Positions 367 to 25,837 of a stretch of DNA of 64,000 bases are shown here, piece after piece. Made by a program: the position numbers and the translations under genes. The notes under the pieces were generated by a model. The model saw nothing but the letters and a program-made list of their open reading frames with translations, had not been told where the DNA came from and did no database searches. How positions within the stretch are numbered: the first letter of the stretch is position 1; the number at the start of each line of letters is the position of its first letter. Source of the stretch: Schizophyllum amplum (lineage: Eukaryota; Basidiomycota; Agaricomycetes; Agaricales; Schizophyllaceae). The stretch covers positions 1 to 64,000 of the forward strand of contig VDMD01000039.1 in the NCBI GenBank assembly GCA_007026445.1. Direction: 5' to 3'.

Positions 367-707
367 ATGTGCGAAATTTGCATCTTTTCCAACTGCACAG
401 CGAGCGAGTTGTTGAGGGAGGTGCTCCGCACGGGCAAGGTGAGGGTCGTTACAACTAGAAGGAGAGATGACGCATCTGACAGGACCAGACCTACGCCGAG
501 CTCTGGGAGGAATACAAAACAGAGCTGGCCGCGCTGGACAAAGTGTACCGCGCAAAAACCATGCTGGACCTGAGGATCAAGAACCTGGCAGAACTTTGCC
601 CAGAAGCACTTGAAATGGACGAGGAGGAGAATGGACGGCAGTTGACCGCAGAGGAGGCGGTGGGGATGACAGGAGGTGTGGAGAACAAGCAGAGCGCAAG
701 GTCGTAA
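367..707 (+). CDS. Small Cys-module/coiled-coil protein A (acidic type, 96 aa)
   Basis: Two exons, 367-438 and 489-707, flank a 50 bp intron (gtgagg...ccag, phase 0). Exon 1 gives 24 residues beginning MCEICIFSNC, a Cys-x2-Cys-x4-Cys module directly after the start Met. Exon 2 begins TYAELWEEY, forms a predicted helix and contains the block NLAELCPEALEMDEEE before an acidic tail. The copy at 13443-13779 (M) repeats this layout with the same exon 1 length and the same NLAELCPE block, which supports the splice model. No signal peptide or membrane segment is visible. The basic-type gene B follows 134 bp downstream on the same strand, as N follows M. Function is unknown; an acidic member that pairs with a basic member is my inference. 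Confidence 0.78.
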
Positions 708-841
708 AGTGTGACCGAAGCAGTGGAGGGCATGCGCCTCACAAGTGACTCTAATTAGTAGGGGCTGGAAACAAATTTAAATGTGGAGCCGGGAGTGAAC
801 TTGCTGTCAACGCCCATCATCAAAATCAGAGACGATTGGCG

Positions 842-1129
842 ATGTGCGGAAAGTGCGACAGGAGCGAGTGCAAGCTCAAAGAAACAATGGAAACAGGCGT
901 ACGTCTACAGGTGAGTTGCGCTCGTTACACAACGCCAGCTGCTTAGTGTGCAAACAAGAACTACATGTACGCCGTGCAAGTGCTGGAAAGGATGCGGCAG
1001 GTCAAAGCCGAGCAGGAGAAGGACAACAGGAGCGCTGAGATCCGTATTGGCATCTACAAGGAGCGCATAAAGGGTCTGCGGAGCGCAAAGAAGGCAGCCA
1101 TTCAGCCAGACGGGAAGGCGGCAGCGTGA
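842..1129 (+). CDS. Small Cys-module/coiled-coil protein B (basic type, 75 aa)
   Basis: Exons 842-898 and 959-1129 are separated by a 60 bp intron that opens with a strong gtacgt donor and ends aacaag. Exon 1 is only 19 codons, starting MCGKCDRSEC, shorter than the 24 codons of gene A but equal to its relatives N (13823) and O (14244). Exon 2 starts NYMYAVQVLERMRQV, continues through YKERIKGLRSAKKAA and ends in a lysine-rich tail. N has HYVYAMRALEGIRQV and YKERIKAWKAANRR at the same places. A second possible donor (gtgagt at 911) would keep a few more exon 1 codons; the alignment to N favours the first. Function unknown. Confidence 0.75.
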
Positions 1130-1590
1130 AGGCACAGTCGAGGATGATCACAACGCAGACAAAGGAAGGAAGTGTAGAGGTTGAGGTGAGCGCAGACCGT
1201 TGGGTGGGTGCGGGGAGGTGGAAAGAGCAGGTGTATGGATTGGCTGGATGACAGGACGTGTGGGGTATTTGGGAAGCCCGTATGAGCAAGAAGTCGCTTA
1301 CACCACCTTGTCTCTTAAGCCGGTGGAGAGTAGGAAGGGGGCTACGGTGCGTGGATGAATTCTCCTTGGCAACGGCGGCTGATTTCGCTGTAGAATTTAA
1401 ATGATTCTCAACGACTCGCCTGAATTCGTGCCACCAAACGTTGCAGCCAATCCTTCAGCGGGTCTAATGCCACAATGCCATCCGCTCCTTGTGTGTCCAG
1501 TATTCTGCATGGCTGCTGTGCTATCCGAGCAAGTAGCGCACTCTGCGTGTCAACTCATCTCTGAATTAACTGCCCCTCCTCTTTATCCTG

Positions 1591-1973
1591 CTAATTGCCG
1601 TCTTTCTTCCCCTCCCCTTCTGTGCCCTTGATGTGCTCGTCATTGTTGCTGAGGTCTTCTTCACCCTCCTCGTCTTCCTCATCCTCCTCGTCTTCCTCCT
1701 CATCCACGTCCTCCAAGGTCTCATCAAACAGGTCGGGATATCTGGATCGCAGGTCCTTCATAGCCTGACGTACACTACGTATCTCCTCCTCAAGCTGATT
1801 GCTGTGCTCGTGTTCTTTGTGCATGGCCTCTTCGACAGCGGGGGCGGTCTAGTAAAGAATACTCGTGTCAGACAAGATTTCCTGAACACAATATAGCTTA
1901 CCATTCCTGACCGAATCATAACCTGCAGATCTTGATTGACATCGCATGTCTTACTCCCGCAAATCAAACACAT
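1591..1973 (-). CDS. Small Cys-module protein C with long acidic tail (109 aa)
   Basis: On the minus strand exon 1 is 1973-1902 and exon 2 is 1848-1591, with a 53 bp gtaagc...ctag intron. The protein starts MCLICGSKTC and continues NQDLQVMIRSGM. Exon 2 opens TAPAVEEAMHKE, runs through a helical block (EEEIRSVRQAMKDLRSRYP) and ends in an Asp/Glu run (DEEEDEEDEEDEEGEED). Gene J (7155-7531) is its closest relative, with RTIRQAMAHLGSRN at the same place. The divergent neighbour D begins 216 bp away and is likewise the closest relative of K, J's neighbour. A purely acidic tail on a coiled coil suggests a protein-protein or histone-like contact, but that is a guess. Confidence 0.8.
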
Positions 1974-2189
1974 TGTGGTGTGTACAGACAAGGTGGAAGA
2001 GGATAGCGTGTCCGTGCGCTGAATCCTCGACGGTAGGAAGAAGCGATCAAAATGATTGCACGTGATCAGTGAAAGCGATTGATGATTCACGAGCAGCTTC
2101 CTCACGCCTCAAAGGCTGTCTCCTGCCATCATCACCGTTACAAAAACTTCACCGTTTGAGCATAACCACCTCACCTGCTGGTGCACATC
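1974..2189. promoter_or_regulatory. Shared divergent promoter of C and D
   Basis: These 216 bp separate the two start codons. At 2044-2058 lies a near-perfect inverted repeat, CGATCA-AAA-TGATTG. The paralogous C/D-type promoter at 7532-7733 has the same motif as a perfect inverted repeat, CGATCA-GAA-TGATCG (7596-7610), and both share a tcctgccatcatcac block nearer the rightward gene. A common operator read in both directions is an inference. Confidence 0.45.
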
Positions 2190-2493
2190 ATGTGCAAACC
2201 TTGTCATTCGGAGGATTGCGCGCTCGCCCAGGCGTACCCGCTCCGAAGCGATTATGTGCGTTAATTGCACATTGTTTTTGTAGAGACCTCACCTGTCTCA
2301 GTGTCATGGATATGAAATGAAATTGCTTGCGCGTGCAACAAAGGCCAGAAAGGGCAAGGAAGAGGAACTGAAACACATGCGAGCGGACCTCGACGAAATG
2401 GAGGAGATGTTGGCGGGATGGAAGGAAGCAAAACAGCGTGGACAGTCAATGAAGGAGTGGAAGGCCGCTTGGTGGGCTGACATATCGGAATGA
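2190..2493 (+). CDS. Small Cys-module/coiled-coil protein D (85 aa)
   Basis: Exon 1 (2190-2255, 22 codons) gives MCKPCHSEDCALAQAYPLRSD; a 46 bp gtgcgt...ctcag intron precedes exon 2 (2302-2493). Exon 2 reads CHGYEMKLLARATKARKG, then a heptad-like helix (LKHMRADLDEMEEMLAGW) and the signature W-x2-A-K-x2-G-x-S-x2-E-W seen in all rightward partners (here WKEAKQRGQSMKEW). K at 7734-8045 is the nearest relative, sharing MCKPC-x-SEDCALAQ and the same intron position. D is transcribed divergently from the acidic gene C. Mixed charge, no signal peptide. Function not recognised. Confidence 0.8.
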
Positions 2494-2881
2494 GAATCTA
2501 GCTACTTGTCCTCTTAATGCATGTATCGCATGTCTCGCACAACACCAACATAGAAGCGCTGCATATTGCGGCATAGGCAAGCACCAAACAGATTTGATCT
2601 ATATACCTTAATCCTTGCACATTTGTTGATTATAGTCCTCACGCTCGCAGGCGTAGTGGCGGTCGCAGACGTTTACCTGCCGGCACAAGTGAGAATACGA
2701 GGGATACTGTAGCATTTCGACCGTATGTTCAGTCACGCGTCACAACCGTTTTGCGGGAACCCCGCAATAATTTTCTTTCGATTTATCGGGTTTTTGGAGA
2801 ATTCTCGGATAAATTTTACGTCATAATTGATGAACATACGGTCGAAATGCTACAGTAAGGGCCGGACTTTGACTTTTAATT

Positions 2882-3065
2882 GGCAAGGCCCAAAGCGGTG
2901 TCCCGCGGACGACACGGGATGCCAAAAAAGGTAATACATTGGCGAGGCCCAAAGCGGTGTCCCGCAGACGACGCGGGATGCCAAAAAAGGTAATACATTG
3001 GCGAGGCCCAAAGCGGTGTCCCGCGGACGACGCGGGATGCCAAAAAAGGTAATACATTGATGCTG
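2882..3065. repeat. 61 bp tandem repeat, three copies
   Basis: Three head-to-tail copies of a 61 bp unit carry the core aaagcggtgtcccgcgg and a 3' part ccaaaaaaggtaatacattg. Copies differ at a few bases. The array abuts the 3' end of gene E. A related short piece (caaaagcggtggcgcgg) occurs near 5940, so the unit may come from a dispersed element. Confidence 0.8.
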
Positions 3066-3069
3066 GGCC

Positions 3070-3367
3070 TCACTGCTCTTCGTCTACATCCCCCTCGGCG
3101 GCATCGCGATCCAGACAGTGGAACAGCACCTCCCAGTACATGCCCTCAAGGTCATCCACAGCCTTCTGGGCATCCAGCAAGTCGCGCTGAACGTGCTTGA
3201 GGTGCTCGCGCTTGGCGATGATGGCTTCCCCTATATTGAAGGCGCTCTGGAAACGGTGATGAGAACCGTAAGAAGGACGACAAGAGAGTCTCTACCGTGC
3301 CCAGCCGGATCATTGCGCATAGTCCTTGGTTGATATTGCAGGTCGATTGACCGCAGATGTTGCACAT
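3070..3367 (-). CDS. Small Cys-module protein E (82 aa)
   Basis: Exon 1 is 3367-3296 (24 codons) and exon 2 is 3246-3070, with a 49 bp gtagag...tccag intron. The product begins MCNICGQSTCNINQGLC and continues AMIRLGT. Exon 2 starts SAFNIGEAIIAKREHLK, continues LLDAQKAVDDLEGMYWEVLF and ends with a short acidic tail (GDVDEEQ). P at 14630-14990 is the paralogue, with QAIIVKRELLK at the matching position after eight aligned codons. Gene F diverges 114 bp away, and P's neighbour Q is F's paralogue. The acidic tail is much shorter than in C, J or P. The stop lies only a few bases from the 61 bp tandem repeat. Confidence 0.78.
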
Positions 3368-3481
3368 GACGAAAGCGTACGAGATGAAAGAGGGGGAAGA
3401 GAGGCGTGCGATCGGCGCATATTGGCAATCAGCGCAGACAGATGTGCCGCGCACCACGTTTTGCCTTCCACAACCATTAGT

Positions 3482-3782
3482 ATGTGCACCGCTTGCGCCG
3501 AACCGGACTGCCAGCTGGCAGAAGCGTATCCGATGCATGCCGCCTTTGTGCGTGTCCTGCGCATGCAACAGCGAACATTAATCTGACCTGGGCTAGATGC
3601 AACAGGTGCAGGAGCTGCTGCACCTAGACGAGCAATTGCGCCTCACGCAGGAGCAGTGGGAGGTGGAGAAAAGCAGGCTTGCGAGTCTGAGGAAGGCCAC
3701 TGTGTCATGGGAGATAGCCAAAGCGCAGGGAAAAACAATAAGCGAGTGGAACGAGGAGTGGCTGAAAGCCGGTGGAGAGTAG
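3482..3782 (+). CDS. Small Cys-module/coiled-coil protein F (78 aa)
   Basis: Exon 1 (3482-3547) encodes MCTACAEPDCQLAEAYPMHAAF. The 64 bp intron ends at ...ggtgcag, and exon 2 (3612-3782) starts ELLHLDEQLRLTQEQWEVEK. An upstream acceptor (caacag) is also present. I chose the downstream one because it keeps frame and gives exact agreement with paralogue Q, where only that acceptor works. The C-terminal signature is WEIAKAQGKTISEW followed by NEEWLKAGGE. F and Q are both 78 aa, so this subtype is under length constraint. It diverges from E. The helix has alternating Leu spacing typical of a coiled coil. No known domain. Confidence 0.8.
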
Positions 3783-3959
3783 GAAGGGGGGCTACGGTGC
3801 GTGGATGAATTCTCCTGGGCAACGGCGGCTGATTTTGGTGTAGAGGGCTACAGGGTACAAGATTACGTGACAGTACATGGTCTTCCGCATGCGACTGCTG
3901 CTCGCGGCGGTGTGCGAGCCAGCGCTAGGATGACATGAGAACCAATGTTGTTCGCGGCG

Positions 3960-4279
3960 CTACTCCTCCTCATCAGTTGTGGCACTCTCCGCCAGCTCCT
4001 CCGCATCCCTCGCATCCGTGTCCTCATTGTCGTAGTACGCTCTGGGATACGTGACGTGGAGGTCGTCAATCAGACGCTTCATCGCCCTCATGTTTTCCTC
4101 GAGCTGTTTCATTCGCTGGCGTTCTTTTTCCAGGGATTCAGCGACGATGGCAGGGGTCTGGGGAAAGCTGTCAGCCTTCTGCGGGTAGTGCGCAGGTCAT
4201 CTCCCACCCTTTCAGACCGTATCATGAACTTGAGCAGTCGGATGACTTCGCACTTGCGATCCGTGCAAATGACGCACAT
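3960..4279 (-). CDS. Small Cys-module protein G, acidic tail (89 aa)
   Basis: Exons 4279-4208 and 4157-3960 are joined across a 50 bp gtggga...cccag intron. The N-terminus is MCVICTDRKCEVIRLLKFMI; exon 2 opens TPAIVAESLEKERQRMKQLEE, reaches DDLHVTYPRAYYDNEDTDAR and ends acidic (AEELAESATTDEEE). R at 15475-15806 is a close copy: it also has MCVICT-x-RKCEVIRLLK and YPRAFYDTEDTDARDAEE. Sequence is conserved even in the spacer between Cys module and intron. Gene H diverges 128 bp away. The neighbour relationship G/H is repeated by R/S. Function unknown. Confidence 0.8.
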
Positions 4280-4340
4280 GGTGGGATGAGCTATGGTGAT
4301 GATGGGATGAGAAAGAAAGGGAAGACGTTAAGATAAAGGG

Positions 4341-4351
4341 TTAAATAATCG
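4341..4351 (+). promoter_or_regulatory. TATA-like element ttaaataatcg in the G/H promoter
   Basis: The same 11 bases are found at 15875-15885 between R and S, followed in both by a tgctttctcacgc block just before the rightward start codon. Conservation between the two promoters, where flanking bases have diverged, is the evidence for function. Confidence 0.4.
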
Positions 4352-4407
4352 CGCTTCTGCTTTCTCACGCATTGCAGGTTGCTTCCAACCACCATCACCT
4401 TTCGCAT

Positions 4408-4735
4408 ATGTGTCAAACCTGCGCTGCCCCGGACTGTGCGCTGTCGCAAGCGTACAACCACCCTGATCGAAAGTCGTTTGTGCGTGTGGTCCACCTTGAG
4501 GGGTTCGCAAGCTTACACATCCCAGGATGTTGACATCGAGCAACTGCGCCGTGCAATGAAGGAGAGAAGGAAGATGGAGATCGAGCGGAGGAGGTTGAGT
4601 CAGGACATGCATGACGCGCTGAGGACATCGAACGAATGGGAGTCCGCTAGGCGCAACGGCATCACCACAACCCAGTGGAAGGCCTCGCGGGCTGAGACGA
4701 AGGTCAGAGACAGTGATCCTATGGTGCGCACGTGA
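4408..4735 (+). CDS. Small Cys-module/basic coiled-coil protein H (93 aa)
   Basis: Exon 1 (4408-4479, 24 codons) gives MCQTCAAPDCALSQAYNHPD and RKSF. After a 46 bp gtgcgt...cccag intron, exon 2 (4526-4735) gives DVDIEQLRRAMKERRKMEIE and RRRLSQDMHDALRTSNEW. It ends with the rightward signature WESARRNGITTTQWK. The helix is strongly basic, in contrast with the acidic tail of its divergent neighbour G. S at 15942 is the paralogue, with APDCALAQAFNHPNRKSF in exon 1. The opposite charges of G and H fit a heterodimer, though nothing in the sequence proves one. Confidence 0.8.
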
Positions 4736-5009
4736 ACACTGCTGCTCATCGGTGGACTAACACGGGGCAGGACGGCGCGCAGGCATCAACCTCGACCTCT
4801 ACCTTGGCTTCGACGGCGTAAGGATTGGCCATAGTGCGAGCATTCAGTGATGGCGGCCAGATTCATGGGCTGGTGTATGTGGACTTGGACAGGTGATGCT
4901 GGTACAGCATTCCCCTTAGCATGCCTTTAGCTAAGCCATGTCACACCCGCACCGCTGCATGATTAGCAGAGTGATGGTCATACACCCTTTCGTTGGATGA
5001 GAGACTTCC

Positions 5010-5230
5010 ATGTGACGGTCATGCGCGCATCCGTAATGCGACGGCCATGCGCAATGCCACGGCCTCAATCCGAACAATCCGCAGAATGCGATGGTCATGC
5101 GCGGATGCGTAATACAAAGGCCATGCGCGCATCGGCAATGCGACGGGCATGCGCGCATCGGCAATGCGACGAGCATGCGCGCAGCGGCGATGAGACGAGC
5201 ATGCGCGCAGCGGCAATGCGACGGCCTCAA
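5010..5230. repeat. Degenerate tandem array of about 20 bp units
   Basis: Repeated variants of a unit containing gcgcatcggcaatgcgacg and catgcgcgcagcggc run for about 220 bp, first loosely, then tightly from about 5120. No gene lies within it. Confidence 0.7.
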
Positions 5231-5598
5231 GCCGAACTATCAGCGGTGGTATGCAGATTCTGATGCCGATGATGCCTGTCAAAGTGACAGGGTGAACGGC
5301 TTTGACATCCCGAACAATGGTGACATCAACGGATTGTGACGATCAATATGCTTATCAGCCGAATACTAGCACACATTAAACATCGGGTGAGAGCTAATGA
5401 AGGCTCACAGGGATACGGGCACCAGGGCGAGCAAAGAGAAGCTAATCAAGACTACCCAGCGGCAGAAGCCATGCGCAGATGTGGAAGCCGACTGACGCCG
5501 AGCAACTATGGACTGCGCATGTGGGATTAGACGTGACAAGGATCAGCAGATCATAATAGCGTGAGGTGCATGTGCGCTAATGGCACACCGAGTGGGTG

Positions 5599-5672
5599 AA
5601 AAAGTCAGAGTCCGGCTGTCAAAACCTCGACAGAGGACGTTTTGAGTGCGGGACTTTGACTTTTGAACTTTT
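5599..5672. repeat. Hairpin element, copy 1
   Basis: About 74 bp whose ends pair (a left arm ending agtccgg and a right arm gggactttgact) with an inner pair gtcaaaac / gttttgag. It matches copy 2 at 5860-5932 closely. This is the layout of a tiny MITE-like or hairpin element; no target duplication could be fixed. Confidence 0.55.
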
Positions 5673-5859
5673 CAAAGTCGGCGTGGTTAACCATCCAGCA
5701 AAAGTAGTGCGCAGGTAAGAAGCAGTGTGCGAGGTGCGATGCGGAAGAGGACGCATGGCGGGTGAGCATGGATCGGACATGTGTGATGAGATTCGATAAG
5801 GATCACCGAGTGATGACGGAATATGGGGGATGAGGCCGAAAGGCACATTCGGTGAGCTC

Positions 5860-5932
5860 AAAATCCAGAGTCCCGCAGTCAAAACCTCGACAGGCGGCGT
5901 TTTGAGAGCGGGACTTTGACTTTTGAAAGTTT
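5860..5932. repeat. Hairpin element, copy 2
   Basis: Left arm gtcccgcagtcaaaac pairs with right arm gttttgagagcgggac around a loop that shares cctcgacag with copy 1. The right flank gactttgacttttgaa is shared with copies 1 and 4. Confidence 0.6.
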
Positions 5933-6384
5933 CAAGTCCAAAAGCGGTGGCGCGGGCTGACGCGGGTCAACCAAACAAGGACAGATGGATGGGAGTGGCT
6001 ATGGGTAAGTAACTGGAGATGTAAGAACGTACAGCAAGGCTAGCTGGAGGTAAAGCGTAAATTGGTGCGGATCAGCAGAATGGGGGCGCAAGCAGATAAA
6101 CTGGTCCCTGACATAAAGGGAGGGCCTGCAGGTAGGAGAGGTACATGAACCAAGTGTACAATAGTAGCCACACATGTGAGCGAAGGCACCGCAAACAGAC
6201 GAGGTACATGCGCGCAAGGAAGAGCTGAGGCGCTGGAAATGAGTGACATACCTGGGCGCAAATCAGCATTGACAGCAGACAAGGAACGAGGTGTGGTAAA
6301 CATCAGTGACCACTGACAGAGAATTGGGGGACAGATAAGCTGAACCGCAAAGGTGCGAAGATGAACCACCCTAACCCGAAGAGA

Positions 6385-6525
6385 AGCAGCACCACTGAGG
6401 TGCGAAGAAGGACCACCGGGGTGCGAAGCAGAACCACCGGGGTGCGAAGCAGAACCACCGGGGTGCGAAGCAGTACCACCAGGGTGCAAACCAGTACCAC
6501 CAGGGTGCGAAGCAGAACCGCATAG
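6385..6525. repeat. 21 bp tandem repeat
   Basis: About six copies of a 21 bp unit (gaaccaccggggtgcgaagca and variants). Because the period is a multiple of three, one minus-strand frame stays open and reads RTPVVLL repeatedly; I regard this as a by-product, not a gene. Confidence 0.75.
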
Positions 6526-6814: not shown

Positions 6815-6880
6815 TATTAGCAGAACCAGGCACGAGCAGAACCGGTTCTGATAGCAGAACCACGGATAAGGGGGATAGTT
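6815..6880 (+). repeat. Dispersed AGCAGAACC repeat, copy 1
   Basis: Contains agcagaaccggttct followed by tagcagaacc and a short gataag/ggtaag motif. The same order of motifs occurs at 24190-24245. Boundaries could not be defined from two copies. Confidence 0.45.
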
Positions 6881-7154: not shown

Positions 7155-7531
7155 CTATTTGCCCTCCGCCTCGTTGATTCCCTCGTCATGTCCTCTGTGG
7201 CTATCATCGGCTTCCTCATCCTCGTCTGCCTCATCCGCTTCCTCATCCTCGTCTGCCTCATCCGCTTCCTCATCCTGGTCGGCCTCATCCGATGTTTCGT
7301 AAAAGACCTCGTAGTTTCGAGATCCCAGATGAGCCATAGCCTGCCGTATCGTACGCAGCTCGATTTCGAGCTCCTTCTGTGTGGCCTGTTCGACAGCGGT
7401 AGCGGTCTGGTAAGCTTGGTCAGCACCCAACAATGCTCTGAGTGCAGGATGGAGCTCGCCTTTCCCGACAGGATCATGCTTTGCAGAATTTGGTAGACTT
7501 CGCAAGTATTGTCGCCGCAGATCACACACAT
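7155..7531 (-). CDS. Small Cys-module protein J, acidic repeat tail, GC-AG intron (107 aa)
   Basis: Exon 1 (7531-7460) encodes MCVICGDNTCEVYQILQSMI and LSGK. The intron (7459-7407, 53 bp) starts gcgagc, a GC donor, and ends taccag; its position matches the GT donor of paralogue C exactly. Exon 2 (7406-7155) starts TATAVEQATQKELEIELRTI, then RQAMAHLGSRNYEVFYET. Its tail is made of 27 bp (nine-codon) repeats reading EADEADEDE. The tail is therefore likely to vary in length between strains. K diverges from it 202 bp away. Function unknown; acidic partner by analogy with C. Confidence 0.78.
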
Positions 7532-7733
7532 TGCGGTACAAAATGGCGAGGTAAGAGAAGACGTCCTTTGTGCGCGTATGATCGAAAGAAGAGACCGATC
7601 AGAATGATCGCAGGCGATCGGTACGAATTCATGAATGCGCCACCTGTCTGACAATCAATACCTTGCGTCCTGCCATCATCACATTGACGACAACTTTACC
7701 CACTAAAGGCGACACCCACTGCTTGTGGAGATA
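7532..7733. promoter_or_regulatory. Shared divergent promoter of J and K
   Basis: These 202 bp carry the perfect inverted repeat CGATCA-GAA-TGATCG at 7596-7610, with a second cgatcgg close by. The C/D promoter has the same motif with one mismatch, and otherwise only patches of similarity, so selection on this site is plausible. Confidence 0.45.
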
Positions 7734-8045
7734 ATGTGCAAGCCGTGTTCCTCCGAGGACTGTGCACTCGCTCAGGTGTACCAGCTTCAAGACGCCTATG
7801 TATGTCCGTTTCTTTGGCTTTTTCACTTATCTCACATATCTTAGTATCATAAAGGGGCTGTGAAGCTGCTTGCGCAGGAAAGAGTGTATCGGGAGAACAA
7901 GGAGCAAGAGCTCCGAGACCTTCAAGGTCACCTGGATGAGATGAGGGAGCTGCTGGCGGCATGGGAGGCGGCAAAGCAGCGAGGGGAGTCATTGGAGGAG
8001 TGGAAGGCTGCTCAACAGGCGAGTGCGCTGGAGTCAGACACTTGA
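7734..8045 (+). CDS. Small Cys-module/coiled-coil protein K (88 aa)
   Basis: Exon 1 (7734-7799) gives MCKPCSSEDCALAQVYQLQD and AY. A 45 bp gtatgt...cttag intron, the second shortest here, precedes exon 2 (7845-8045). This starts YHKGAVKLLAQERVYRENKE, has a leucine-spaced helix (LRDLQGHLDEMRELLAAW) and the signature WEAAKQRGESLEEWK. It is the paralogue of D, with the same exon lengths apart from three extra C-terminal codons. K is transcribed divergently from J. Nothing suggests secretion. Confidence 0.8.
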
Positions 8046-8618: not shown

Positions 8619-9062
8619 CTAGCTAACGGTGCCCGATGACGATCCTGCCTCGCTCGTGGGCTCGGGGAAGAACTGGCGGCGCATGTTGTCGACAAGACCT
8701 GCAACGAGCGTATGACGGCGCTCGAGCACGTCGTTCTGGAACACGCGTGTGAGTCGAGCTGATGACCGACCGGACGAGTGCCACACCTGCTGCTGGAGGC
8801 GAGCGACATCCAACCTGAGCTGCACGCATGAAGCACCGCATTGAGGCTCGCTCGCTCGCTGATGCGCGAGCTCTTCCCGAAGCGACTGAATCTCGGCTTC
8901 CTGTCCCTTGAACGCCTCCCGCAGATGGGTCAGGGTGTACGCCTGCACATCAAGCATATCCAAGGGTTTGGTGATCACCGCGTCGGGGTGGCAATGCCGG
9001 GGGCGCACATACGCAGGGATGCGCAGCTCGTCTGCGTCACCGGGCTGATCATCGTATGCCAT
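8619..9062 (-). CDS. Predicted coiled-coil protein, intronless (147 aa)
   Basis: A single minus-strand frame with start at 9062 (MAYDDQPGDADELRIPAYVR). Residues about 50-95 form a coiled-coil-like helix (LREAFKGQEAEIQSLREELA) and a second helix follows near VQLRLDVARLQQQVW. A CGASC motif lies between them. The frame is open further upstream to 9158, but that part is low-complexity and the chosen Met gives a more protein-like start. It lacks the N-terminal cysteine module and intron of its neighbours, so it is not an obvious family member. It could be a regulator with a coiled coil, or a chance frame in GC-rich DNA. Confidence 0.5.
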   Translation of the reverse strand: MAYDDQPGDADELRIPAYVRPRHCHPDAVITKPLDMLDVQAYTLTHLREAFKGQEAEIQSLREELAHQRASEPQCGASCVQLRLDVARLQQQVWHSSGRSSARLTRVFQNDVLERRHTLVAGLVDNMRRQFFPEPTSEAGSSSGTVS

Positions 9063-9291
9063 CGGCGACACTGGACTGAACCTGCGCGGGGGAATGGCGG
9101 GAGAGTAATTGGACGGCTTGCTATGAAAAACAAACAGAGAGGAAGAGGGTGGGCGCACGCGCTTGGCTGGAGTGCGAGGTGATTGACCCGTGTAGGTAGC
9201 GGGGAGCGTGGGAAACTATTGACAAAGCGGGTTGTTCCCGTCCACATCCATCACAACCGCCCAAACACACCTCACAAGTGCGCATACGGTG

Positions 9292-9575: not shown

Positions 9576-12250
9576 GCTACCTTACGACAAGGCTGGGACC
9601 ACCTGGTATAGGTATTTATGGAAATCATGACTGGAATTTGGCACTGTATAACATACATAAGGCAGTTCCTATCTGCGGCAGCGGGCGGGGACGCGACGGT
9701 AGTACATGACTGGGGCGAGAGCAAAAGCGATGTCACCTTGCGTGACGAGCAGGCCAGTCGCCTCCCGCGCTGTGCACTCGTCTGCAGCGCGCGGATCCAG
9801 GGGTGTAGGGAAAAGCTGGAGCCAAGCGGTGGCGCGTATTCGCGAGATGGCGCGTTCGACTGCGTGCAACTGTGATCGAGGGGCCGGTCGCGAGCCCACC
9901 CGCAGTGAGAGGGCTTGTCAGCCAAGGAGAGGTATTGCGCGTTGTGAGGGCACGAGGGAGGGATACAGCGGAGAAGCGGGAGACAACGGCGATTGCTAGA
10001 GATGACAGATGGGCTGTGAGAAGCGGAGAGACGGGCACAGGCGGGATAGTAATGTGTGCGTCCTGGTGGCGCATGGCGGGCAGTCGCCGCCATGCGTGGC
10101 TGCGCACGATGTCGAGCGAGGGGTGGGGCAAGAAGTGCGGCTACGAGGGGCTGGGAAGCCGTCTCGCGCCGCCCGCTCTGCTCATGATGACGGGCAGCCA
10201 GCAGCGCCTCAGCGTCTCTCGCCGTGCTTTCGTGAGCCCCCTCGCCCTTGGCGCATCGCCTGCGCTGACTGCGTCGAGCGCGAGCGCGGGAGCGCCACCG
10301 CGTCACTGGCGCTGGAGGCGTCGGCACCGCCCCTTGTGCGTAAAAGTCCAGTGTAGCATGTAAATATCGTCTATGTCAGTCCTTTGTTACGTGGCCGAGC
10401 ATAGTGGACGTACTTGGCTAGGTGAGCGCTCATAATGCCTCGCCCTCGGGCCGTCGCGCGCTTTGAAGCGCGCCGTTTTGCGTAGAGATTCAGAAGGGGA
10501 TGAGGTACGGTATCTTGAGGTGAGAATGAATCGGAAGGAAAAAGTGAACTTGAAGCAACCGCAACGGCAGCGCGGTCGCGGTTGCTGTGAGGACGTTGAT
10601 CGCCCCCCCCCCAGTGCAGGCGAAGTGCTGCAAGCCGGCCCTCAAGTGAGAAGCACGTGACCGGCTAGTTGCGGCCGATTTCGGATGCCCCGGGATGCCC
10701 CGTCGTTTTTTCCTCCCGAACTTCGACCATCTGTCTTCCATGGCCTTCCGCGCTGAATGCGATTCGCCCACTGCGACTCCGGCGCCGCGGTTAACGTAGG
10801 ACATCACACAGGCGTCGTTCAACATGCCCGACAAGCGCGCCCTCGACTTCCCTCACGCCCTCCACACCTCGCACCTCCCGCTTTCGCGTGTCCGCGAGCT
10901 CTGGCCCTCACCGCATTTTCCCGGCATCTGGGCCGCCTTGCACAGCGCTTTGCACTCCCACGCTGCCTCGCTTGTCGTTTCCCGTGCCTGTTGCGCGTAT
11001 GGCAGGCCACTCCGCCTGCGCTTCTCGCGCTCTCACCGACACCCATGCCATTCACAAGGCCTGAATAGCATTCTTCAGCGTAGACCCCACGTGTCTTGAT
11101 CGCTCGCGTCACTGCTCAGCGCGCGCGATGTTGGTGAATACTACAAGGAATTGACGGCCCAGGAAGTGTCAGGCCCACGTATCGCGGGGGCTTGTGGTCG
11201 AGGTGCGTGATCACCGTCTGCTATGGACATGACTAACGACTTCACCATTATAGACTGCCTGTACGGCTTGTTTGGCGTGCGGAGATGTCACTGGCGATTT
11301 GTAACCTATCTGCTGCCGTATGCACCGCGCCCGGGTATGTTAAGGATTACTTGCCGTGCGATGCTTACCGGTATACACAGGTACATTCCTTGTCCTTGCA
11401 GTCAACCAGCTCCTTCTCATTGCCAACGAATCCAAGCTGTGTGTGCTTATATTCATCTCACCTGCCTTGCTGACACGAGCGTAGTCATCTGCTTTATGTT
11501 CCATGCGCGCCATCGCTTACAGGGCAAGGTGCGCCGTATCAGTATCATCTCTTTATATTGCTGATCATGCATTGCAGTCGTTAGCTGCGCGCGGTGTGCC
11601 CGCCGAAGACTTCGTCCTTCCCACTCATTGGCTTCGGTGCTCCGTCGGAAGTCCATCTCAAGATGTGGTGCTGGGTGTATCTCAGCAGTCGTGTCAGTAG
11701 TACATCATGTAGTAGTTATAGACCTTGAATCTAGAGCTGTTCTTTCATCATTCCGTTACACATTAAGCAAGTGGCATCTGGTCCTCAAGTGAGCTACTGG
11801 TTGTCTTATTCCTGTATCTTACAGTCTTGTCTGGCCTGCTTAATCTTAAATGTCTTGTCTTGTGGGCTGGAGTAAGTAGGTCCCAACTTAAGCAAGTCGT
11901 CAACTTACTGTCTTATTGACTGCTGCCAGACAGTTAAGGCGCGAAAACGTTTCCTGATGCAAGCGCCTGCAGGATGAGATGAGGCAGATGGTCGACAAGT
12001 ACGAGCCAGAAACGGAGACTGAGGAGGAGGAGGAGGAGGAGGAGGAGGAAGAGGAGGAGGAGAATGCGGGAGGGACGGATACCGAAAATGTCGAAAAGGG
12101 CAAGTCCAGCGAGTCCAGCGCGCAGACAAAAGGAGGGCAAGATACTGAGGACCACGAGTTGAGCGACGAGGAAGAGCGATAGTCGCATGCAGGGCGATAA
12201 GGTGGATAGGGGGTGATATCAATCAGCTGATGTTTATCAATCCGGCGATG
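9576..12250. other. Spacer without a convincing gene
   Basis: Long open frames run on both strands through 9.6-10.4 kb, as expected at this GC content; their translations are Arg/Pro/Ala-rich and have no recognisable domain. A run of nine Cs lies near 10604. At 11.1-11.9 kb the sequence is less GC-rich and holds many splice-like signals, but I could not build a sensible gene. Near 11979-12182 there is an isolated acidic frame, listed separately. Confidence 0.5.
11979..12182 (+). pseudogene. Orphan acidic exon, possible remnant of an acidic-tail family gene
   Basis: After a ctgcag that could serve as acceptor, the frame reads DEMRQMVDKYEPETETEEEE, then a run of about 15 Glu and a Ser/Glu-rich end (HELSDEEER). 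The order helix, Tyr-containing turn, then Asp/Glu run is that of exon 2 in genes C and J. No exon 1 with Met-Cys-x2-Cys could be found upstream. It may be a leftover exon, or just a GAG microsatellite in an open frame. Confidence 0.3.
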
Positions 12251-12256
12251 TGTCTG

Positions 12257-12329
12257 AAAATTCAAAGTCCCTACATCCAAACGCGTTTGAGGGACGTTTG
12301 GACAGAAGGACTCTGAATGTTCAACTTTT
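12257..12329. repeat. Hairpin element, copy 3
   Basis: Outer arms ttcaaagtcc and ggactctgaa pair imperfectly; an inner palindrome tccaaacg / cgtttgga sits between them. It lies just upstream of gene T. Confidence 0.5.
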
Positions 12330-12382
12330 GGCCGATGCGCAGCAAGCACCACCTTGTTCCTCACGCTCATCACAAGCCGTCT

Positions 12383-12657
12383 ATGCCGGTCAACAACCCT
12401 GAACGGTTCGTGTGCTCGCACTGCGGACGCGAGAGCAGCAGCGGGACGTATGAACAGGTGTGCAGCGGTGAAAGCGCCTGACATGGCTGACGACTTGGCA
12501 GCGATTGAGCGCGCTGTGGGAAAAGTGCCAGCGCTTGGAGGCCTTGAACGCAGAGATCAGAACGGAGAATCACTTGTTGAGCTGTGAGAAGGTGATGATG
12601 CGTGAGCAGTACGAGACGGGCGGGTCACCCGAGCGGTTGTTGGAGCGGGAAGGATAG
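12383..12657 (+). CDS. Small CxxC/coiled-coil protein T (76 aa)
   Basis: Exon 1 (12383-12457) reads MPVNNPERFVCSHCGRESSS and GTYEQ; a 44 bp gtgtgc...ggcag intron (phase 0) leads to exon 2 (12502-12657). Exon 2 reads RLSALWEKCQRLEALNAEIR, then TENHLLSCEKVMMREQY and ends LLEREG. One Cys-x2-Cys pair replaces the three-cysteine module, and it is ten residues in rather than at the N-terminus. Gene layout and helix are otherwise like those of its neighbours, so it may be a distant relative or an unrelated small zinc-ribbon protein. It stands alone, flanked by hairpin copies 3 and 4. Confidence 0.5.
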
Positions 12658-12752
12658 TAATCTGCGGGGTATCGGAAGAGGGGCGGGTAGTGATCAGTCA
12701 ATGCCATTATGAGCGCCCAGGCACATGGGTCCAGGATGAGCCGGGAGACCGC

Positions 12753-12827
12753 CAAAATTCAAAGTCCCTAGGTGCAAACGCCCTCGAGGGAGATTTGGAC
12801 AGCGGGACTTTGACTTTTGAACTTTTG
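12753..12827. repeat. Hairpin element, copy 4
   Basis: Left arm ttcaaagtccc and right arm gggactttga are perfect inverted repeats. It is the most symmetrical of the four copies and ends about 80 bp before gene L. Confidence 0.6.
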
Positions 12828-12907
12828 AGGTGCGACCAGGTGAAAGCCGACGCCACAAACACTCGCTCTTTCTTCCCGCGTCCATCCTACCGCACACATC
12901 GCCCAAC

Positions 12908-13302
12908 ATGTGCCTGATCTGTCCAACTGCAGGATGTCCGGATTACGAGCTGCTGAGCAAGGTCACGGTGTTAGGAATGGTGCGCGAGACGGCTGAGCTC
13001 CGGCGGAAACTGTGGCTGACGGACTGGAAAAGACATACACCGAGCTGCTGCACGCATGCGAGGAAGAAGAGGAGCTGTGGAAAAAGGCGTCGGGAAGGAT
13101 TGTCACACTCAACAAGATGCGCACACGCTGGGGGGACATTTACATGGAGATGCTGCGCAACGATGAAGACGCCGTGGACGGGTTGCAGCATGCGTGCTCC
13201 ACCGAAACCGGTCGCATGGCCACCGATGAAGAGGAAATGGCAGCCGGAGAAGGCGCGGGCGCGCTGAACAAGTGGGTGGAGGAGGGTGGGCAGGATCTGT
13301 GA
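12908..13302 (+). CDS. Small Cys-module protein L (113 aa)
   Basis: Exon 1 (12908-12979) gives MCLICPTAGCPDYELLSKVT and VLGM; a 53 bp gtgcgc...aaaag intron precedes exon 2 (13033-13302). Exon 2 starts TYTELLHACEEEEELWKKAS, close to TYAELWEEY in A and M, then has MRTRWGDIYMEMLRNDED and an acidic tail with GRMATDEEEMAAGEGAGALN. It is the longest plain member. A 14 bp repeat (gaggagggtgggca) starts in its last codons and continues past the stop. No close copy of L exists in the window. Its partner may be O, the unpaired basic gene downstream of the M/N pair; that is inference only. Confidence 0.75.
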
Positions 13303-13442
13303 GGGGAGGAGGGTGGGCAGGATGTGTGAGGGGATCGGCAAGCGAGGCGAGGTGGTGCCAGCCGTGGGAGATTTAGGAGTGGCTAAATAGACCCTTTAGG
13401 GAAACGCAACCTGCTTCCCACACCCATTGAAACCGCATAGCC

Positions 13443-13779
13443 ATGTGCCACGTTTGCGACAGCAGCGAGTGCGGAAGGCGCAAAGTGCTTACCCAAGTGC
13501 TCGAGATGGGAATGGTGAGCGTCAGATCGCCCTGGGTGACTCCCTAACGCAGCGCAGACGTACGCCGAGCTCTGGGAGCAATACGAAGCAGAAAAGAAGG
13601 CGCTGTGCGAGCGGTACCTGGAGCGGGGCCACTTGGCGGTGCGAATGAAAAACCTGGCAGAGCTCTGTCCAGAGGTGTTTGCGTCGGGAGAGGGAGATGA
13701 CGAGGAAGCCGAAGAGCTGGAGGAGGAGGCCGAGGTGGAAGGCATGCTGTTGGTCCCTGATATCGAGGAGTGCACTTGA
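13443..13779 (+). CDS. Small Cys-module protein M (acidic type, 97 aa)
   Basis: Exon 1 (13443-13514, 24 codons) begins MCHVCDSSECGRRKVLTQVL. The intron is 43 bp (gtgagc...gcgcag), the shortest in the cluster. Exon 2 (13558-13779) gives TYAELWEQYEAEKKALCERY, then MKNLAELCPEVFASGEGDDE and an acidic tail ending VPDIEECT. It is the paralogue of A: the TYAELW start and NLAELCPE block match. N starts only 43 bp after its stop on the same strand, so M and N could even share a transcript. Confidence 0.8.
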
Positions 13780-13822
13780 GCTCCATCTTGCCTTAGACCA
13801 CCATCATCTCGAGCCGTCAAAG

Positions 13823-14114
13823 ATGTGCAATCAATGCTACGACGCGGAATGCAAGCTGCAGCAAACGATGACGGAACCCGTGAGCCTTTATGTGCGTGGC
13901 CGAAAGGTTGCCTGTACGCTGCTGATGGGCAGCGCAGCACTACGTGTACGCCATGCGCGCCCTCGAGGGCATACGCCAAGTCAGAACCCGTGTGGAGATG
14001 GAAAACAAGGAGGAAGAGAGCAAGATTGCGATGTATAAGGAGCGCATCAAGGCTTGGAAGGCTGCGAACAGGAGGGGTGTCGGCGCTGAAAGCACCTCGA
14101 GCGCCGATCCATAG
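13823..14114 (+). CDS. Small Cys-module protein N (basic type, 77 aa)
   Basis: Exon 1 (13823-13879, 19 codons) is MCNQCYDAECKLQQTMTEP; a 58 bp gtgagc...gcgcag intron follows. Exon 2 (13938-14114) starts HYVYAMRALEGIRQVRTRVE, has MYKERIKAWKAANRRG and ends GAESTSSADP. It is the paralogue of B, with identical exon 1 length and the shared YKERIK block. It keeps the order acidic gene then basic gene seen in A-B. The basic helix would suit an acidic partner such as M. Confidence 0.8.
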
Positions 14115-14243
14115 ACCAGTGACAGATCGGGATGGAGGGGGAGCACGAATATATAAGGAAGGATGCAACGTGAAACCCATCTTGTCTCTTACCACCACCA
14201 TCGCGTCGGACCAACAGCAATCGCAGCTACCGCGACCTCCGGC

Positions 14244-14505
14244 ATGTGCCAGTTTTGTGACAAGAAGACGTGTGAGATGGCGCAGTTCATAGGACCGCAA
14301 GTGCACATCAGCGTGCGTAGAGGGCGCGCGTGGATCTTGGGTGCGCAGCTGACAACAAGATCAGGAATACGTCCGCGTCGAGGACAAGTGGCGCAAGATG
14401 CGGGCCACCAGAAAGAAGCGCGAGGAGGAGGAGGCCAACGTCCGCGATGAGATTGACTACTACCAGAAGGCGGTCAGGGAGTACGTGGATAAGAAGGACT
14501 CGTAG
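14244..14505 (+). CDS. Small Cys-module protein O (basic type, 65 aa)
   Basis: Exon 1 (14244-14300, 19 codons) reads MCQFCDKKTCEMAQFIGPQ. A 64 bp intron (gtgcac...atcag) leads to exon 2 (14365-14505): EYVRVEDKWRKMRATRKKRE, then EEANVRDEIDYYQKAVREYV and DKKDS. It is the shortest member, with the exon 1 length of B and N but a different helix. The donor gtgcac is weak; another at gtagag 18 bp on would not keep the frame. It lies between the tandem pair M/N and the divergent pair P/Q and has no adjacent acidic partner. Confidence 0.72.
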
Positions 14506-14629
14506 CATCCGCTGTGAGTAACTTGTCCGAAAGCAAGCACGCTGCTGACGGGCGACCAGAGAGTGAGCGCGCTCACCCGCATGCGATGCAGATATACACG
14601 CTGTAAGCGATGTTGAAGATACATAATGT

Positions 14630-14990
14630 TTACACCTGCGCGTCCGCCGCCCTGTCTTCTTCCCGAACAATCTGATGCTGCTCCTCCTGCTCCTCGTTGC
14701 TGTCGCCGTCTTCCTCCTCGTCATCCTCCTCCTCGTCATAATCACAATTCAGAGGATAATACAGCACATCCGAGTACATTCTCTCGAGGTTGTTCACAGA
14801 TTCCTGCACATCCTCCAGGTCCTGCTCCAGCCGCTTGAGCAGCTCGCGCTTTACAATGATGGCTTGCGCCACATGGCAGAGAGGCTGGACAAGGCTGTCA
14901 GAGGTGTAACAGGTAGGATAGGCAGGGAGCTTCTACCGTGCCCGACTGGATCATAGAGCGCAGTTGTTGGTTGACAGCGCACGTCGACAT
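14630..14990 (-). CDS. Small protein P, acidic tail, Cys module truncated (102 aa)
   Basis: Exon 1 (14990-14937) codes MSTCAVNQQLRSMIQSGT, 18 codons instead of the 24 in paralogue E. Alignment with E shows that the six codons after the start Met, carrying two of the three cysteines, are missing in frame, leaving only the third Cys. The intron is 52 bp (gtagaa...gtccag). Exon 2 (14884-14630) begins PLCHVAQAIIVKRELLKRLE and includes LEDVQESVNNLERMYSDVLY. Its Asp/Glu tail is long (CDYDEEEDDEEEDGDSNEEQ). The reading frame is intact, so the gene may still work without the cysteine module. Divergent partner Q is intact. Confidence 0.72.
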
Positions 14991-15090
14991 GGTGAAAGCG
15001 GATGAGATGGACGATCGGGAAAAGGGGCGTGCGTCGGTCGCATATTGCCAATAAGATGACACCGCTCGCCACATTCTGCCTTGCGCCACC

Positions 15091-15389
15091 ATGTGCCCTG
15101 CTTGTGCCGAACGCGACTGCGATCTGGCAAGAGCGTATCCAATGCAAGCATCCCTTGTGCGTGTTCTTTGCGTGGGGAGCATCCGCTTATCTGACCTGTG
15201 CTGCATGCGACAGGTCAGGAGCTGCTGCAGCTCGAGGAGCAATTGCGCCTGACGCAGGAGCAGTACGAGTTGGAAAAAAGCGTGCTTGCGAACTTGAGAG
15301 AGGCCACCAGCTCGTGGGAGACAGCAAAGGCGCAGGGAAAGACGATAAGCGAGTGGAATGAGGAGTGGTTCAACGCTGGTGGGGCGTAA
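15091..15389 (+). CDS. Small Cys-module/coiled-coil protein Q (78 aa)
   Basis: Exon 1 (15091-15156) is MCPACAERDCDLARAYPMQA plus SL. The intron (15157-15218, 62 bp) ends gacaggtcag; only this acceptor keeps the frame, which also settled the choice in paralogue F. Exon 2 (15219-15389) gives ELLQLEEQLRLTQEQYELEK, SVLANLREATSSW and the signature WETAKAQGKTISEW, then NEEWFNAGGA. It equals F in length and differs from it mostly by conservative changes, so both look maintained. The start has a good context (gccaccATG). Divergent from P, 100 bp apart. Confidence 0.82.
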
Positions 15390-15474
15390 AAGGTGCGTGG
15401 GTGAACCTCGCTTGGCAGCAGCAGCTGATTGTTTGCAGACGCGCGCAGCATACAGGATTACATGACCTTTAATG

Positions 15475-15806
15475 CTATTCGGTCTGCCCCTGCGGCTCAT
15501 CAGCCATGGCGCCCTCCGCCCTCTCCTCCGCGTCCCTCGCATCCGTGTCCTCAGTGTCGTAAAACGCTCGGGGATACCTGGTGTGAAGGTCGTTAAAGAC
15601 CTTGCGCATCTCGCATAGCTCCTGGTCAAGCCGTTCCATGTTCCCGTGTTCCTTCTGCCTGGCTTCGGCAACACTGGCTGGGGTCTAAGGGACACCGTTA
15701 GTGTTGAGCTTGTAGCGCGCACATGTTCTCGCACCTTTTCAGCGCGCAGCATGCATTTCAATAGTCGAATGACCTCACACTTTCGATTCGTGCAGATAAC
15801 ACACAT
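15475..15806 (-). CDS. Small Cys-module protein R, acidic tail (93 aa)
   Basis: Exons 15806-15735 and 15684-15475 flank a 50 bp gtgcga...ccttag intron. The protein begins MCVICTNRKCEVIRLLKCML and RAEK; exon 2 starts TPASVAEARQKEHGNMERLD, then ELCEMRKVFNDLHTRYPRAF, and the tail reads DTEDTDARDAEERAEGAMAD before a Gln-rich end. It is the close copy of G. The tail has lost the Glu run seen in G (TTDEEE) and ends EPQGQTE. S diverges from it 135 bp away. Confidence 0.8.
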
Positions 15807-15941
15807 TGGCGGATGGGTTGTGGTGATGGTGGGATGATAAAGGCAGGTAGCGTATGCGATCAAGGCTTGATGGCTTAAATAATCGTGTGGCTGCTTTCTC
15901 ACGCCTCCCAGGTTGCTTCTTACCACCATCCCCCGGCGCTC

Positions 15942-16562
15942 ATGTGTCTTACTTGTGCTGCCCCGGACTGCGCGCTCGCGCAAGCGTTCAACCACCCCAA
16001 CCGCAAGTCGTTTGTTCGTGTCCTCCATCCTGCTGGGATCACAAGCTCACGCCTCTCAGGACATTGAAGCCGAGCTGCTACGCCGTGAGCTCAAGGAAAG
16101 GAAGAGCAAGCAGAAGGAGTGGCATGTGCTGCGGGAGCGCATGGAGAAGGCCATCAGCACAGTAAAGGAGTGGCAGTCAGCGAGGCGCAAAGGCATCACC
16201 ACGACAGAATGGAAGACGTCTTCGTTAGCTGAGATGATAACGGGCGAGGTGCGCCTCCGCAGATCGCAGCTGATCAGTGCGCTAATGGGAACCAGGACGC
16301 TGCAGAGACATTGGACTCGGCCAAGCGCCACGGAATCACCACGACCGACTGGAAGGCATCTCATTTGGCAGCAGCAGCGGACGACAAGGCTATGGTGCGT
16401 CTAGCCCAACAGCTGCTTATTAGTGCGCTAACATCGGGCAGCGCTCGGCGCAAGCGTCAACATCGTCAGCCCTGTGGTATGGCTGGGATATCGGTGGACA
16501 CGGCCGAAGCCCGGTACATCGGTCCGACCCGGTATATAGTCAGTTTGCATGTATTTGTCTAG
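15942..16562 (+). CDS. Small Cys-module/basic protein S, internally duplicated, 3' end interrupted by LTR element
   Basis: Exon 1 (15942-16013) codes MCLTCAAPDCALAQAFNHPN and RKSF; exon 2 starts at 16060 after a 46 bp intron and reads DIEAELLRRELKERKSKQKE with the signature WQSARRKGITTTEWK. Unlike paralogue H it then has a second copy of this end: a likely intron at 16249-16295 (gtgcgc...accag) leads to DSAKRHGITTTDWKASHLAA. That exon runs across the left edge of the LTR element (16473) and stops at 16562 inside the LTR, giving about 175 aa with a retrotransposon-encoded end. Without the second intron the frame stops at 16404 (138 aa). Before insertion the frame would have continued to a stop now at 23174-23176. 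Confidence 0.65.
16468..16472. repeat. Target-site duplication, 5' side (agccc)
   Basis: The five bases directly before the left LTR are repeated directly after the right LTR at 23139-23143. This proves that the two LTRs bound one inserted element. Confidence 0.85.
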
Positions 16563-25836: not shown

Positions 25837-25837
25837 C

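What the first reader, a model, noticed from the sequence alone, without database searches (positions are those of the whole stretch)
367..16562. Cluster of at least 18 tiny two-exon genes with a Met-Cys-x2-Cys-x4-Cys start and a coiled-coil second exon
Eighteen genes of 65-113 aa (one longer) share exon 1 encoding an N-terminal cysteine module and exon 2 encoding a charged helix; only P has lost most of the module. Five subtypes recur as paralogues (A/M, B/N, C/J+D/K, E/P+F/Q, G/R+H/S), which supports splice sites and frames. I know no family with this layout. Gene finders often miss such short spliced genes, so it may be unannotated in related genomes. Three cysteines per chain could make a shared metal site in a dimer.
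Basis: partly seen in the sequence, partly recalled or inferred. Interest (0 to 1): 0.95.

Follow-up and report, generated by a model that had tools for sequence, protein, structure and literature searches.

The report
Paired mini-genes for metal-clipped coiled coils
The mushroom Schizophyllum amplum carries clusters, one of them within 10 kb of a chromosome end, of tiny genes found in no other organism searched; their proteins start with three fixed cysteines followed by a predicted helix, and likely pair up around a shared metal ion.

Summary
The window is contig C243 of Schizophyllum amplum (Agaricales). All 18 genes are there: 17 start Met-Cys-x2-Cys-x4-Cys (0.04 expected) and P lost two of the three cysteines in an 18-nt in-frame gap. 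Of 18 deposited S. amplum proteins returned by three profile searches, 11 equal my splice models; 7 are truncated, fused or have extra introns. Paralogues are mostly under purifying selection. Related clusters lie on 10 further contigs, mostly near contig ends; one lies 3-10 kb from a telomere array.

Three classes: acidic-tailed, W-hairpin (type II), short basic. All nine type II genes modelled lie head-to-head with an acidic-tailed type I gene, 100-216 bp apart. The first two classes show the 3.5-residue period of coiled coils; the basic class does not. No relative was found outside S. amplum, in Pfam or in the PDB.

Best reading: each pair makes two chains that associate through the coil, their cysteine modules sharing metal. 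Metal binding and pairing are inferred; a crude salt-bridge test did not favour cognate pairs.

The parts
367..707 (+). gene A, acidic-tailed class; exons 367-438, 489-707
   Evidence: the near-identical copy on C291 and relative P0011
842..1129 (+). gene B, short basic class; exons 842-910, 959-1129
   Evidence: paralogue N, dN/dS 0.35
1591..1973 (-). gene C, type I (acidic-tailed), pair with D; exons 1973-1902, 1848-1591
   Evidence: dN/dS to J 0.25
2190..2493 (+). gene D, type II (W-hairpin), pair with C; exons 2190-2255, 2302-2493
   Evidence: dN/dS to K 0.15
3070..3367 (-). gene E, type I, pair with F; exons 3367-3296, 3246-3070
   Evidence: relative on C30, dN/dS 0.27
3482..3782 (+). gene F, type II, pair with E; exons 3482-3547, 3597-3782
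   Evidence: identical to deposited P0004; AlphaFold model
3960..4279 (-). gene G, type I, pair with H; exons 4279-4208, 4157-3960
   Evidence: identical to deposited P0001; AlphaFold model
4408..4821 (+). gene H, type II, pair with G; exons 4408-4479, 4526-4723, 4771-4821 (third exon as in deposited P0015, placed by eye)
7155..7531 (-). gene J, type I, pair with K; exons 7531-7460, 7406-7155; GC-AG intron
   Evidence: C223 relative P0002 has a GT donor
7734..8045 (+). gene K, type II, pair with J; exons 7734-7799, 7845-8045
   Evidence: C223 relative, dN/dS 0.55
   Evidence: near-identical on C301 and C164, weak relative on C275 (E 0.036)
12908..13302 (+). gene L, acidic-tailed; exons 12908-12979, 13033-13302
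   Evidence: identical to deposited P0005
13443..13779 (+). gene M, acidic-tailed; exons 13443-13514, 13558-13779
   Evidence: identical to deposited P0010
13823..14114 (+). gene N, short basic class; exons 13823-13891, 13938-14114
   Evidence: same intron in deposited P0017, which starts at an internal Met
14244..14505 (+). gene O, short basic class; exons 14244-14312, 14365-14505
   Evidence: same splice junction inside deposited P0013
14630..14990 (-). gene P, type I, pair with Q; exons 14990-14937, 14884-14630; two of three cysteines lost
15091..15389 (+). gene Q, type II, pair with P; exons 15091-15156, 15219-15389 (acceptor differs from the copies, which equal P0007)
15475..15806 (-). 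gene R, type I, pair with S; exons 15806-15735, 15684-15475
   Evidence: deposited P0008 is its C-terminal part
15942..16441 (+). gene S, type II, pair with R; exons 15942-16013, 16060-16248, 16296-16394 (third exon as in deposited P0014, placed by eye, holds a second W-hairpin-like motif); a further 3' exon starts at 16442, its end is uncertain
1974..2189 (.). 216-bp shared upstream region of pair C/D; the others are 3368-3481, 4280-4407, 7532-7733, 14991-15090, 15807-15941
   Evidence: CCATCATC-like motif upstream of 9 of 18 window genes

Best explanation
These are genes kept by purifying selection, in a family that three protein searches found only in Schizophyllum amplum, and their products are predicted to be small intracellular coiled-coil chains that likely associate in pairs (a type I acidic-tailed chain with the type II W-hairpin chain encoded head-to-head with it), the Cys-x2-Cys-x4-Cys modules of the two chains together likely holding metal and clipping the coil at its end. 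The short shared upstream region of each pair would make both chains at once; the acidic tails and the W-hairpins would then present different surfaces on a common stalk. Shown: gene structure, low dN/dS, head-to-head class pairing, heptad period in two of three classes, clusters on 11 contigs and one next to a telomere array. Inferred: that the chains pair, that the cysteines bind metal, and that the proteins stay inside the cell (no signal peptide can fit before the Met-Cys start). The biological role is open.
For: Layout constant over 35 modelled genes from the window and five other contigs (partly by construction). Met and three cysteines are the only invariant columns among 24 aligned proteins, the next column reaches 54%. 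dN/dS (NG86) 0.12-0.55 in 24 of 25 usable comparisons. Hydrophobic period 3.48 over 34 proteins, power 30.1 against a maximum of 13.6 in 200 shuffles; 3.48 in the acidic-tailed and 3.44 in the W-hairpin class. AlphaFold: F is one helix 11-65, turn, helix 70-79, mean pLDDT 88. Nine of nine modelled type II genes lie head-to-head with a type I gene, 100-216 bp between start codons. Shared upstream motif at 9 of 18 window genes against 2.9% of random stretches (motif chosen after looking at the same regions). Gene T has the same layout with a CxxC alone.
Against: No metal, complex or expression data. A g-e' salt-bridge score does not favour cognate type I-type II pairs: cognate mean -0.33, other type I-type II -0.21, type I homodimers +0.67, type II homodimers 0.0. 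The basic class shows no heptad period (peak 3.06). AlphaFold leaves residues 1-10 unstructured, and the alignments were shallow (9 and 11 sequences); the G model is weak (pTM 0.39). P keeps an open frame after losing two cysteines. J against its C223 relative has dN/dS 1.33. YN00 gave a value for only 9 of 29 comparisons, among them 0.74 (M/M2) and 0.68 (D/K).
Confidence: 0.35

Rival explanations
1. The N-terminal cysteines are lipid-anchor or N-degron sites rather than metal ligands: after Met removal Cys2 is exposed, the cysteines would be palmitoylated or oxidised, and the helix would lie on a membrane or be degraded in a controlled way, as with the Met-Cys start of mammalian RGS4/5/16 (recalled).
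For: Met-Cys at the very start in all 35 modelled genes (partly by construction); helix predicted from residue 11.
Against: Residues between the cysteines are often polar or acidic and the second position is most often Ile (13 of 35), as in zinc knuckles of the C-x-I-C kind (recalled); gene T has its CxxC away from the N-terminus.
Confidence: 0.2
2. The chains are regulators that bind DNA or RNA: two modules would make an inter-chain cluster like that of Zn2Cys6 factors (two C-x2-C-x6-C halves, recalled), followed by a dimerisation coil.
For: Cysteine module followed by a coil, and head-to-head co-encoded partners as in basidiomycete HD1/HD2 mating genes (recalled); basic class B/N/O.
Against: Spacing is x4, not x6; the helix starts right after the third cysteine with no linker; no Pfam match for Zn clusters or any other domain in the 18 window genes.
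Confidence: 0.12
3. Selfish subtelomeric genes: each head-to-head pair is a poison-antidote-like or drive module kept by its own spread rather than by a host function.
For: Recent near-identical copies on several contigs, location near contig ends and one telomere, restriction to one species in the searches made.
Against: Low dN/dS over deep divergences; recurring order of unlike genes L-M-N-O beside the pairs on three cluster types; no toxicity or drive data.
Confidence: 0.1
4. Decaying or non-coding repeats whose frames are open by chance.
For: P lost part of its module and a copy of P on C223 has a frameshifted tail; deposited annotation is inconsistent.
Against: Frame, splice sites and class motifs persist between paralogues 35-81% identical, with dN/dS mostly well below 1; 11 of 18 deposited models agree with mine.
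Confidence: 0.04

Closest known systems
Rad50 zinc hook (abstracts seen in the listing, e.g. PMC5093744)
   Same: Cysteines at one end of a coiled coil; metal shared between two chains would clip them together
   Different: Rad50 is a long ATPase with CxxC at the apex; here chains of about 70-140 residues carry Cx2Cx4C at the very N-terminus, and metal is not shown
Zn2Cys6 fungal transcription factors (recalled)
   Same: Cysteine cluster before a coiled coil; six cysteines if two modules combine
   Different: There one chain holds all six with Cx2Cx6C halves and a linker; here three per chain, Cx2Cx4C, no linker and no Pfam match
HD1/HD2 mating-type gene pairs of mushrooms (recalled)
   Same: Several head-to-head pairs of unlike genes whose products may dimerise
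   Different: No homeodomain; proteins far smaller; pairs sit among single genes of other classes, in clusters near contig ends
Subtelomeric lineage-restricted gene families of mushrooms, e.g. Agaricus bisporus chromosome ends (PMC7473861, passages read)
   Same: Genes without relatives elsewhere concentrated at chromosome ends; Penelope-like elements linked to telomeres
   Different: The amplified genes there with a domain are RecQ helicases; here short proteins with no detectable domain

Membership tests
Any Pfam-A family | Score above the family's gathering cut-off | tested here: not met
   All 18 window genes and T scanned over (Q in the C164 form, S as deposited P0014); no family reached its cut-off, best was Med30 at 18.5 of 28.1 bits for G
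Proteins with a solved structure | Profile match in the PDB | tested here: not met
   32 sequences at E 0.057-0.93, mostly generic coiled coils; Foldseek of the F model: best E 6
Rad50-type zinc hook | CxxC at a coiled-coil end | tested here: met
   Cx2C at residues 2-5 before a predicted helix, a likeness of layout only; coil not supported in the basic class
Rad50-type zinc hook | Metal bound between two chains | not testable with these tools
   No metal-aware or multi-chain prediction available
Rad50-type zinc hook | ATPase head domains of an SMC-like protein | tested here: not met
   Proteins of about 70-140 residues, no Pfam match
Zn2Cys6 factors | Cx2Cx6C-x(n)-Cx2Cx6-8C in one chain | tested here: not met
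   Only Cx2Cx4C per chain; no Pfam Zn-cluster match
HD1/HD2 mating pairs | Homeodomain | tested here: not met
   No homeodomain match above cut-off
Subtelomeric multigene family | Location next to telomere repeats | tested here: inconclusive
   One cluster (C275) lies 3-10 kb from a terminal TTAGGG array; the other 10 contigs show no array beside the cluster, though most clusters lie near contig ends (lengths)
Single-species (orphan) family | No relatives in other species | tested here: inconclusive
   Three profile searches (546, 880 and 626 candidates scored) returned S. amplum only, but they need shared 5-residue words, and no other Schizophyllum genome could be searched

The most novel reading that the evidence does not exclude
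A new protein family in which a metal site is split between two differently encoded mini-proteins: each chain carries half of a six-cysteine cluster, head-to-head gene pairs supply matched halves, and the pairs and their single relatives diversify near chromosome ends as a combinatorial recognition or assembly kit.
Probability: 0.25. Interest if true: 0.8.

Novelty: new variant of a known kind. Interest (0 to 1): 0.55.

Why it matters
It adds a testable protein family to the large pool of lineage-restricted fungal genes: the layout is fixed, likely partners are named by gene order, the proteins are small enough to express or synthesise, and the metal question can be answered in one experiment. 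If unlike chains share a metal site, it would be a new natural example of metal-clipped coiled coils and a ready source of matched pairs. It also shows how automated annotation treats such genes: 7 of the 18 deposited models seen here are fused, truncated or different from the models drawn from the sequence.

Tried and rejected
Rejected or unsupported: chance. Close relatives in prokaryotes or viruses: scans of genome contigs and viral contigs with one member, P0003, found none (single-protein scans reach close relatives only). Pfam families, solved structures, Foldseek of the F model (six matches, best E 6). A helix-turn-helix reading of the W-hairpin motif, suggested by its A-x3-G spacing, was dropped: the residue before the glycine is polar in the members read, and AlphaFold gives a long helix, a turn and one short helix. 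Preference for cognate pairs from salt bridges: not supported. Literature: eight searches of which I saw the listings, and passages of PMC7473861 and PMC8893723, showed no paper on these genes; the term BD626DRAFT occurs in no held paper. A paper on the S. amplum genome that I recalled (doi 10.1111/nph.16032) is not held, so no expression data were seen.

Known weak spots: gene Q was given an acceptor that breaks its frame (34 codons), so F/Q and Q/F2 were dropped from the dN/dS count; A/M2 and M/M3 were undefined; 21 of the 25 comparisons kept have dS near or above 0.9, so the ratios are rough; the models of M2 and S in that script run on past the likely ends. The listing showed 100 places of 167, and its backward control gave 68, so part of that genome-wide count is chance. 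Upstream motif counts include paralogues and overlapping regions of pairs, and the motif was chosen from the same regions. In the own genome two isolated weak hits lie elsewhere (C223:1339222, E 0.08; C1:862729, E 0.21).
Full report
What the window is. The window is the first 64 kb of contig C243 (286,262 bases) of a 49.65-Mb genome in 309 contigs. The 18 proteins returned for the family are all deposited as hypothetical proteins of Schizophyllum amplum (lineage), and one of them, P0012, joins the window's genes A and B, so the organism is S. amplum.

The genes are real. Met-Cys-x2-Cys-x4-Cys, searched at DNA level, occurs 17 times in the window and 0.04 times by chance. Each hit continues into an exon 1 of 66-72 nt, an intron of 43-62 nt and an exon 2 with an open frame; the intron is GT-AG in 16 and GC-AG in J, whose C223 relative has GT. 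P is the eighteenth gene: its exon 1 lacks 18 nt in frame and keeps one of three cysteines. Eleven of the 18 deposited proteins equal my models, ten of which were on record first; seven do not (observation check). dN/dS by NG86 over 29 paralogue comparisons: 2 undefined, 2 dropped because Q was mis-modelled in that script, and of the remaining 25, 24 lie between 0.12 and 0.55 and one (J against its C223 relative) is 1.33. YN00 returned values for 9 of the 29, from 0.11 to 1.43.

Classes. The initial Met and the three cysteines are the only invariant columns in 24 aligned proteins; the next best column reaches 54%. A predicted helix follows. Acidic-tailed class (A/M, L, and the type I genes C/J, E/P, G/R): a coil, a short aromatic motif often with proline, an acidic tail. 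W-hairpin class (type II: D/K, F/Q, H/S): the coil ends in W-x2-A-x3-G-x-[ST]-x3-W, which reads as helix end, turn and helix start; the AlphaFold model of F shows a helix 11-65, a turn and a helix 70-79 (mean pLDDT 88, pTM 0.55). The model of G is weaker (mean pLDDT 76, pTM 0.39). Short basic class: B/N and O. Over 34 proteins the hydrophobic period of residues 27-64 is 3.48, its power above all 200 shuffles; by class it is 3.48 (acidic-tailed, 19), 3.44 (W-hairpin, 7) and 3.06 (basic, 8; no shuffle control by class), so a coiled coil is supported for the first two only.

Gene pairing. Each type II gene that I modelled lies head-to-head with a type I gene: C/D, E/F, G/H, J/K, P/Q and R/S in the window, and pairs on C30, C223 and C300 (the last read by eye), nine of nine, with 100 to 216 bp between start codons. 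Near-identical copies were not counted. The C300 pair is far diverged (its type I member matches G at 34%) and keeps the layout. A type I gene on C275 (129414) has no type II partner that I found. Upstream regions share a CCATCATC-like motif: 9 of 18 window genes against 2.9% of random 150-bp stretches, and CCATCATC itself in 9 of 36 upstream regions of the family where no 8-mer exceeded 4 in 50 shuffled sets. The motif was chosen from these same regions, and some are paralogous. It hints at common regulation.

Genome-wide distribution. Protein searches of the own genome place the family on 11 contigs. Positions and contig lengths in kb: C30 1.7-6.6 of 63.7; C164 20.3-23.7 of 23.7; C223 2,205.9-2,246.8 of 2,246.8; C242 12.8-15.5 of 288.5; C243 0.4-16.4 of 286.3; C249 224.7-231.8 of 233.3; C254 171.7-177.9 and 210.0-212.6 of 212.6; C275 124.4-131.4 of 134.3; C291 25.9-32.6 and 100.8-105.2 of 110.2; C300 99.6-100.1 of 102.2; C301 95.3-98.8 of 99.8 (lengths). 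Contigs can break because the family is itself repeated, so only C275 is decisive: it ends in a (TTAGGG)n array. Between array and cluster lies a reverse-transcriptase-like frame, which I take for a Penelope-like element from recalled motifs; Pfam gave no match for it, and the genome holds two copies. Penelope-like elements are linked to telomeres in Agaricus bisporus (PMC7473861, passages). Some copies are near-identical to the window (C164 99.3%, C249 98%, C223 98-99%), as alleles or recent copies would be; others are distant (C30/C254, C275). The order L-M-N-O recurs on C30 and C275 and, changed, on C291. Gene T stands before L in the window, with a weak counterpart near the L-type gene on C275.

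Relatives elsewhere. None found: Pfam for all 18 window genes, solved structures, Foldseek, three profile searches of 5.8 billion proteins, two of them listing up to E = 10, and prokaryote and viral contigs with one member. The protein search needs shared 5-residue words, and no other Schizophyllum genome could be searched, so absence from S. commune is not shown.

How it may work. Short chains with a cysteine module at one end of a coil, two classes encoded back to back, and a lone CxxC in gene T fit best with chains that lie side by side and share metal between their modules, in the manner of the Rad50 zinc hook (abstracts in the listing). Six cysteines in a dimer could hold one or two metal ions. 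This is inference. A simple salt-bridge score does not prefer cognate type I-type II pairs over homodimers, so the choice of partner rests on gene order alone. Rivals are a lipid anchor or N-degron at the Met-Cys start, a split nucleic-acid-binding cluster, and a selfish subtelomeric role.

Verdict. A real gene family, undescribed in the searches made and so far seen in one species, with an unusual and testable layout; its function is not known. Interest 0.55.

Noticed in passing
window 25828-30549 (+): Copia-type retrotransposon frame of 1574 codons with RVT_2, gag and integrase matches.
   Followed up: partly
window 39613-43246 (-): Exons of a HEAT-repeat protein that resembles the translation regulator GCN1/EF3 family.
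   Followed up: partly
window 54723-63453 (+): Four long frames of 467-539 codons without any Pfam match at E 0.01.
   Followed up: partly
window 24770-24787 (-): Interstitial stretch of three telomere repeats inside the contig.
   Followed up: no
C275:133044-134153 (-), next to the terminal TTAGGG array: Frame with reverse-transcriptase motifs (YIDD), by recalled motifs Penelope-like; no Pfam match; one further copy on C248, also near TTAGGG repeats.
   Followed up: partly
window 8619-9158 (-): Frame of 179 codons with a likely coiled coil between the two family clusters; no Pfam family above cut-off.
   Followed up: partly
window about 11950-12180 (+) and C275:127393-127899 (-): Coil plus acidic-tail frames ending in KYEPETETEEE-like sequence, alike in both clusters and placed before T/L; the window copy has no clear start and may be decayed.
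   Followed up: partly
window 2879-3059, 5085-5224, 6383-6519: Short tandem arrays (periods 59, 26, 21) between family genes.
   Followed up: no
deposited proteins BD626DRAFT_540172, BD626DRAFT_638570, BD626DRAFT_573874, BD626DRAFT_573870: Annotation errors by my reading: A fused to B; truncated N fused to O; R without exon 1; N without its true start.
   Followed up: yes
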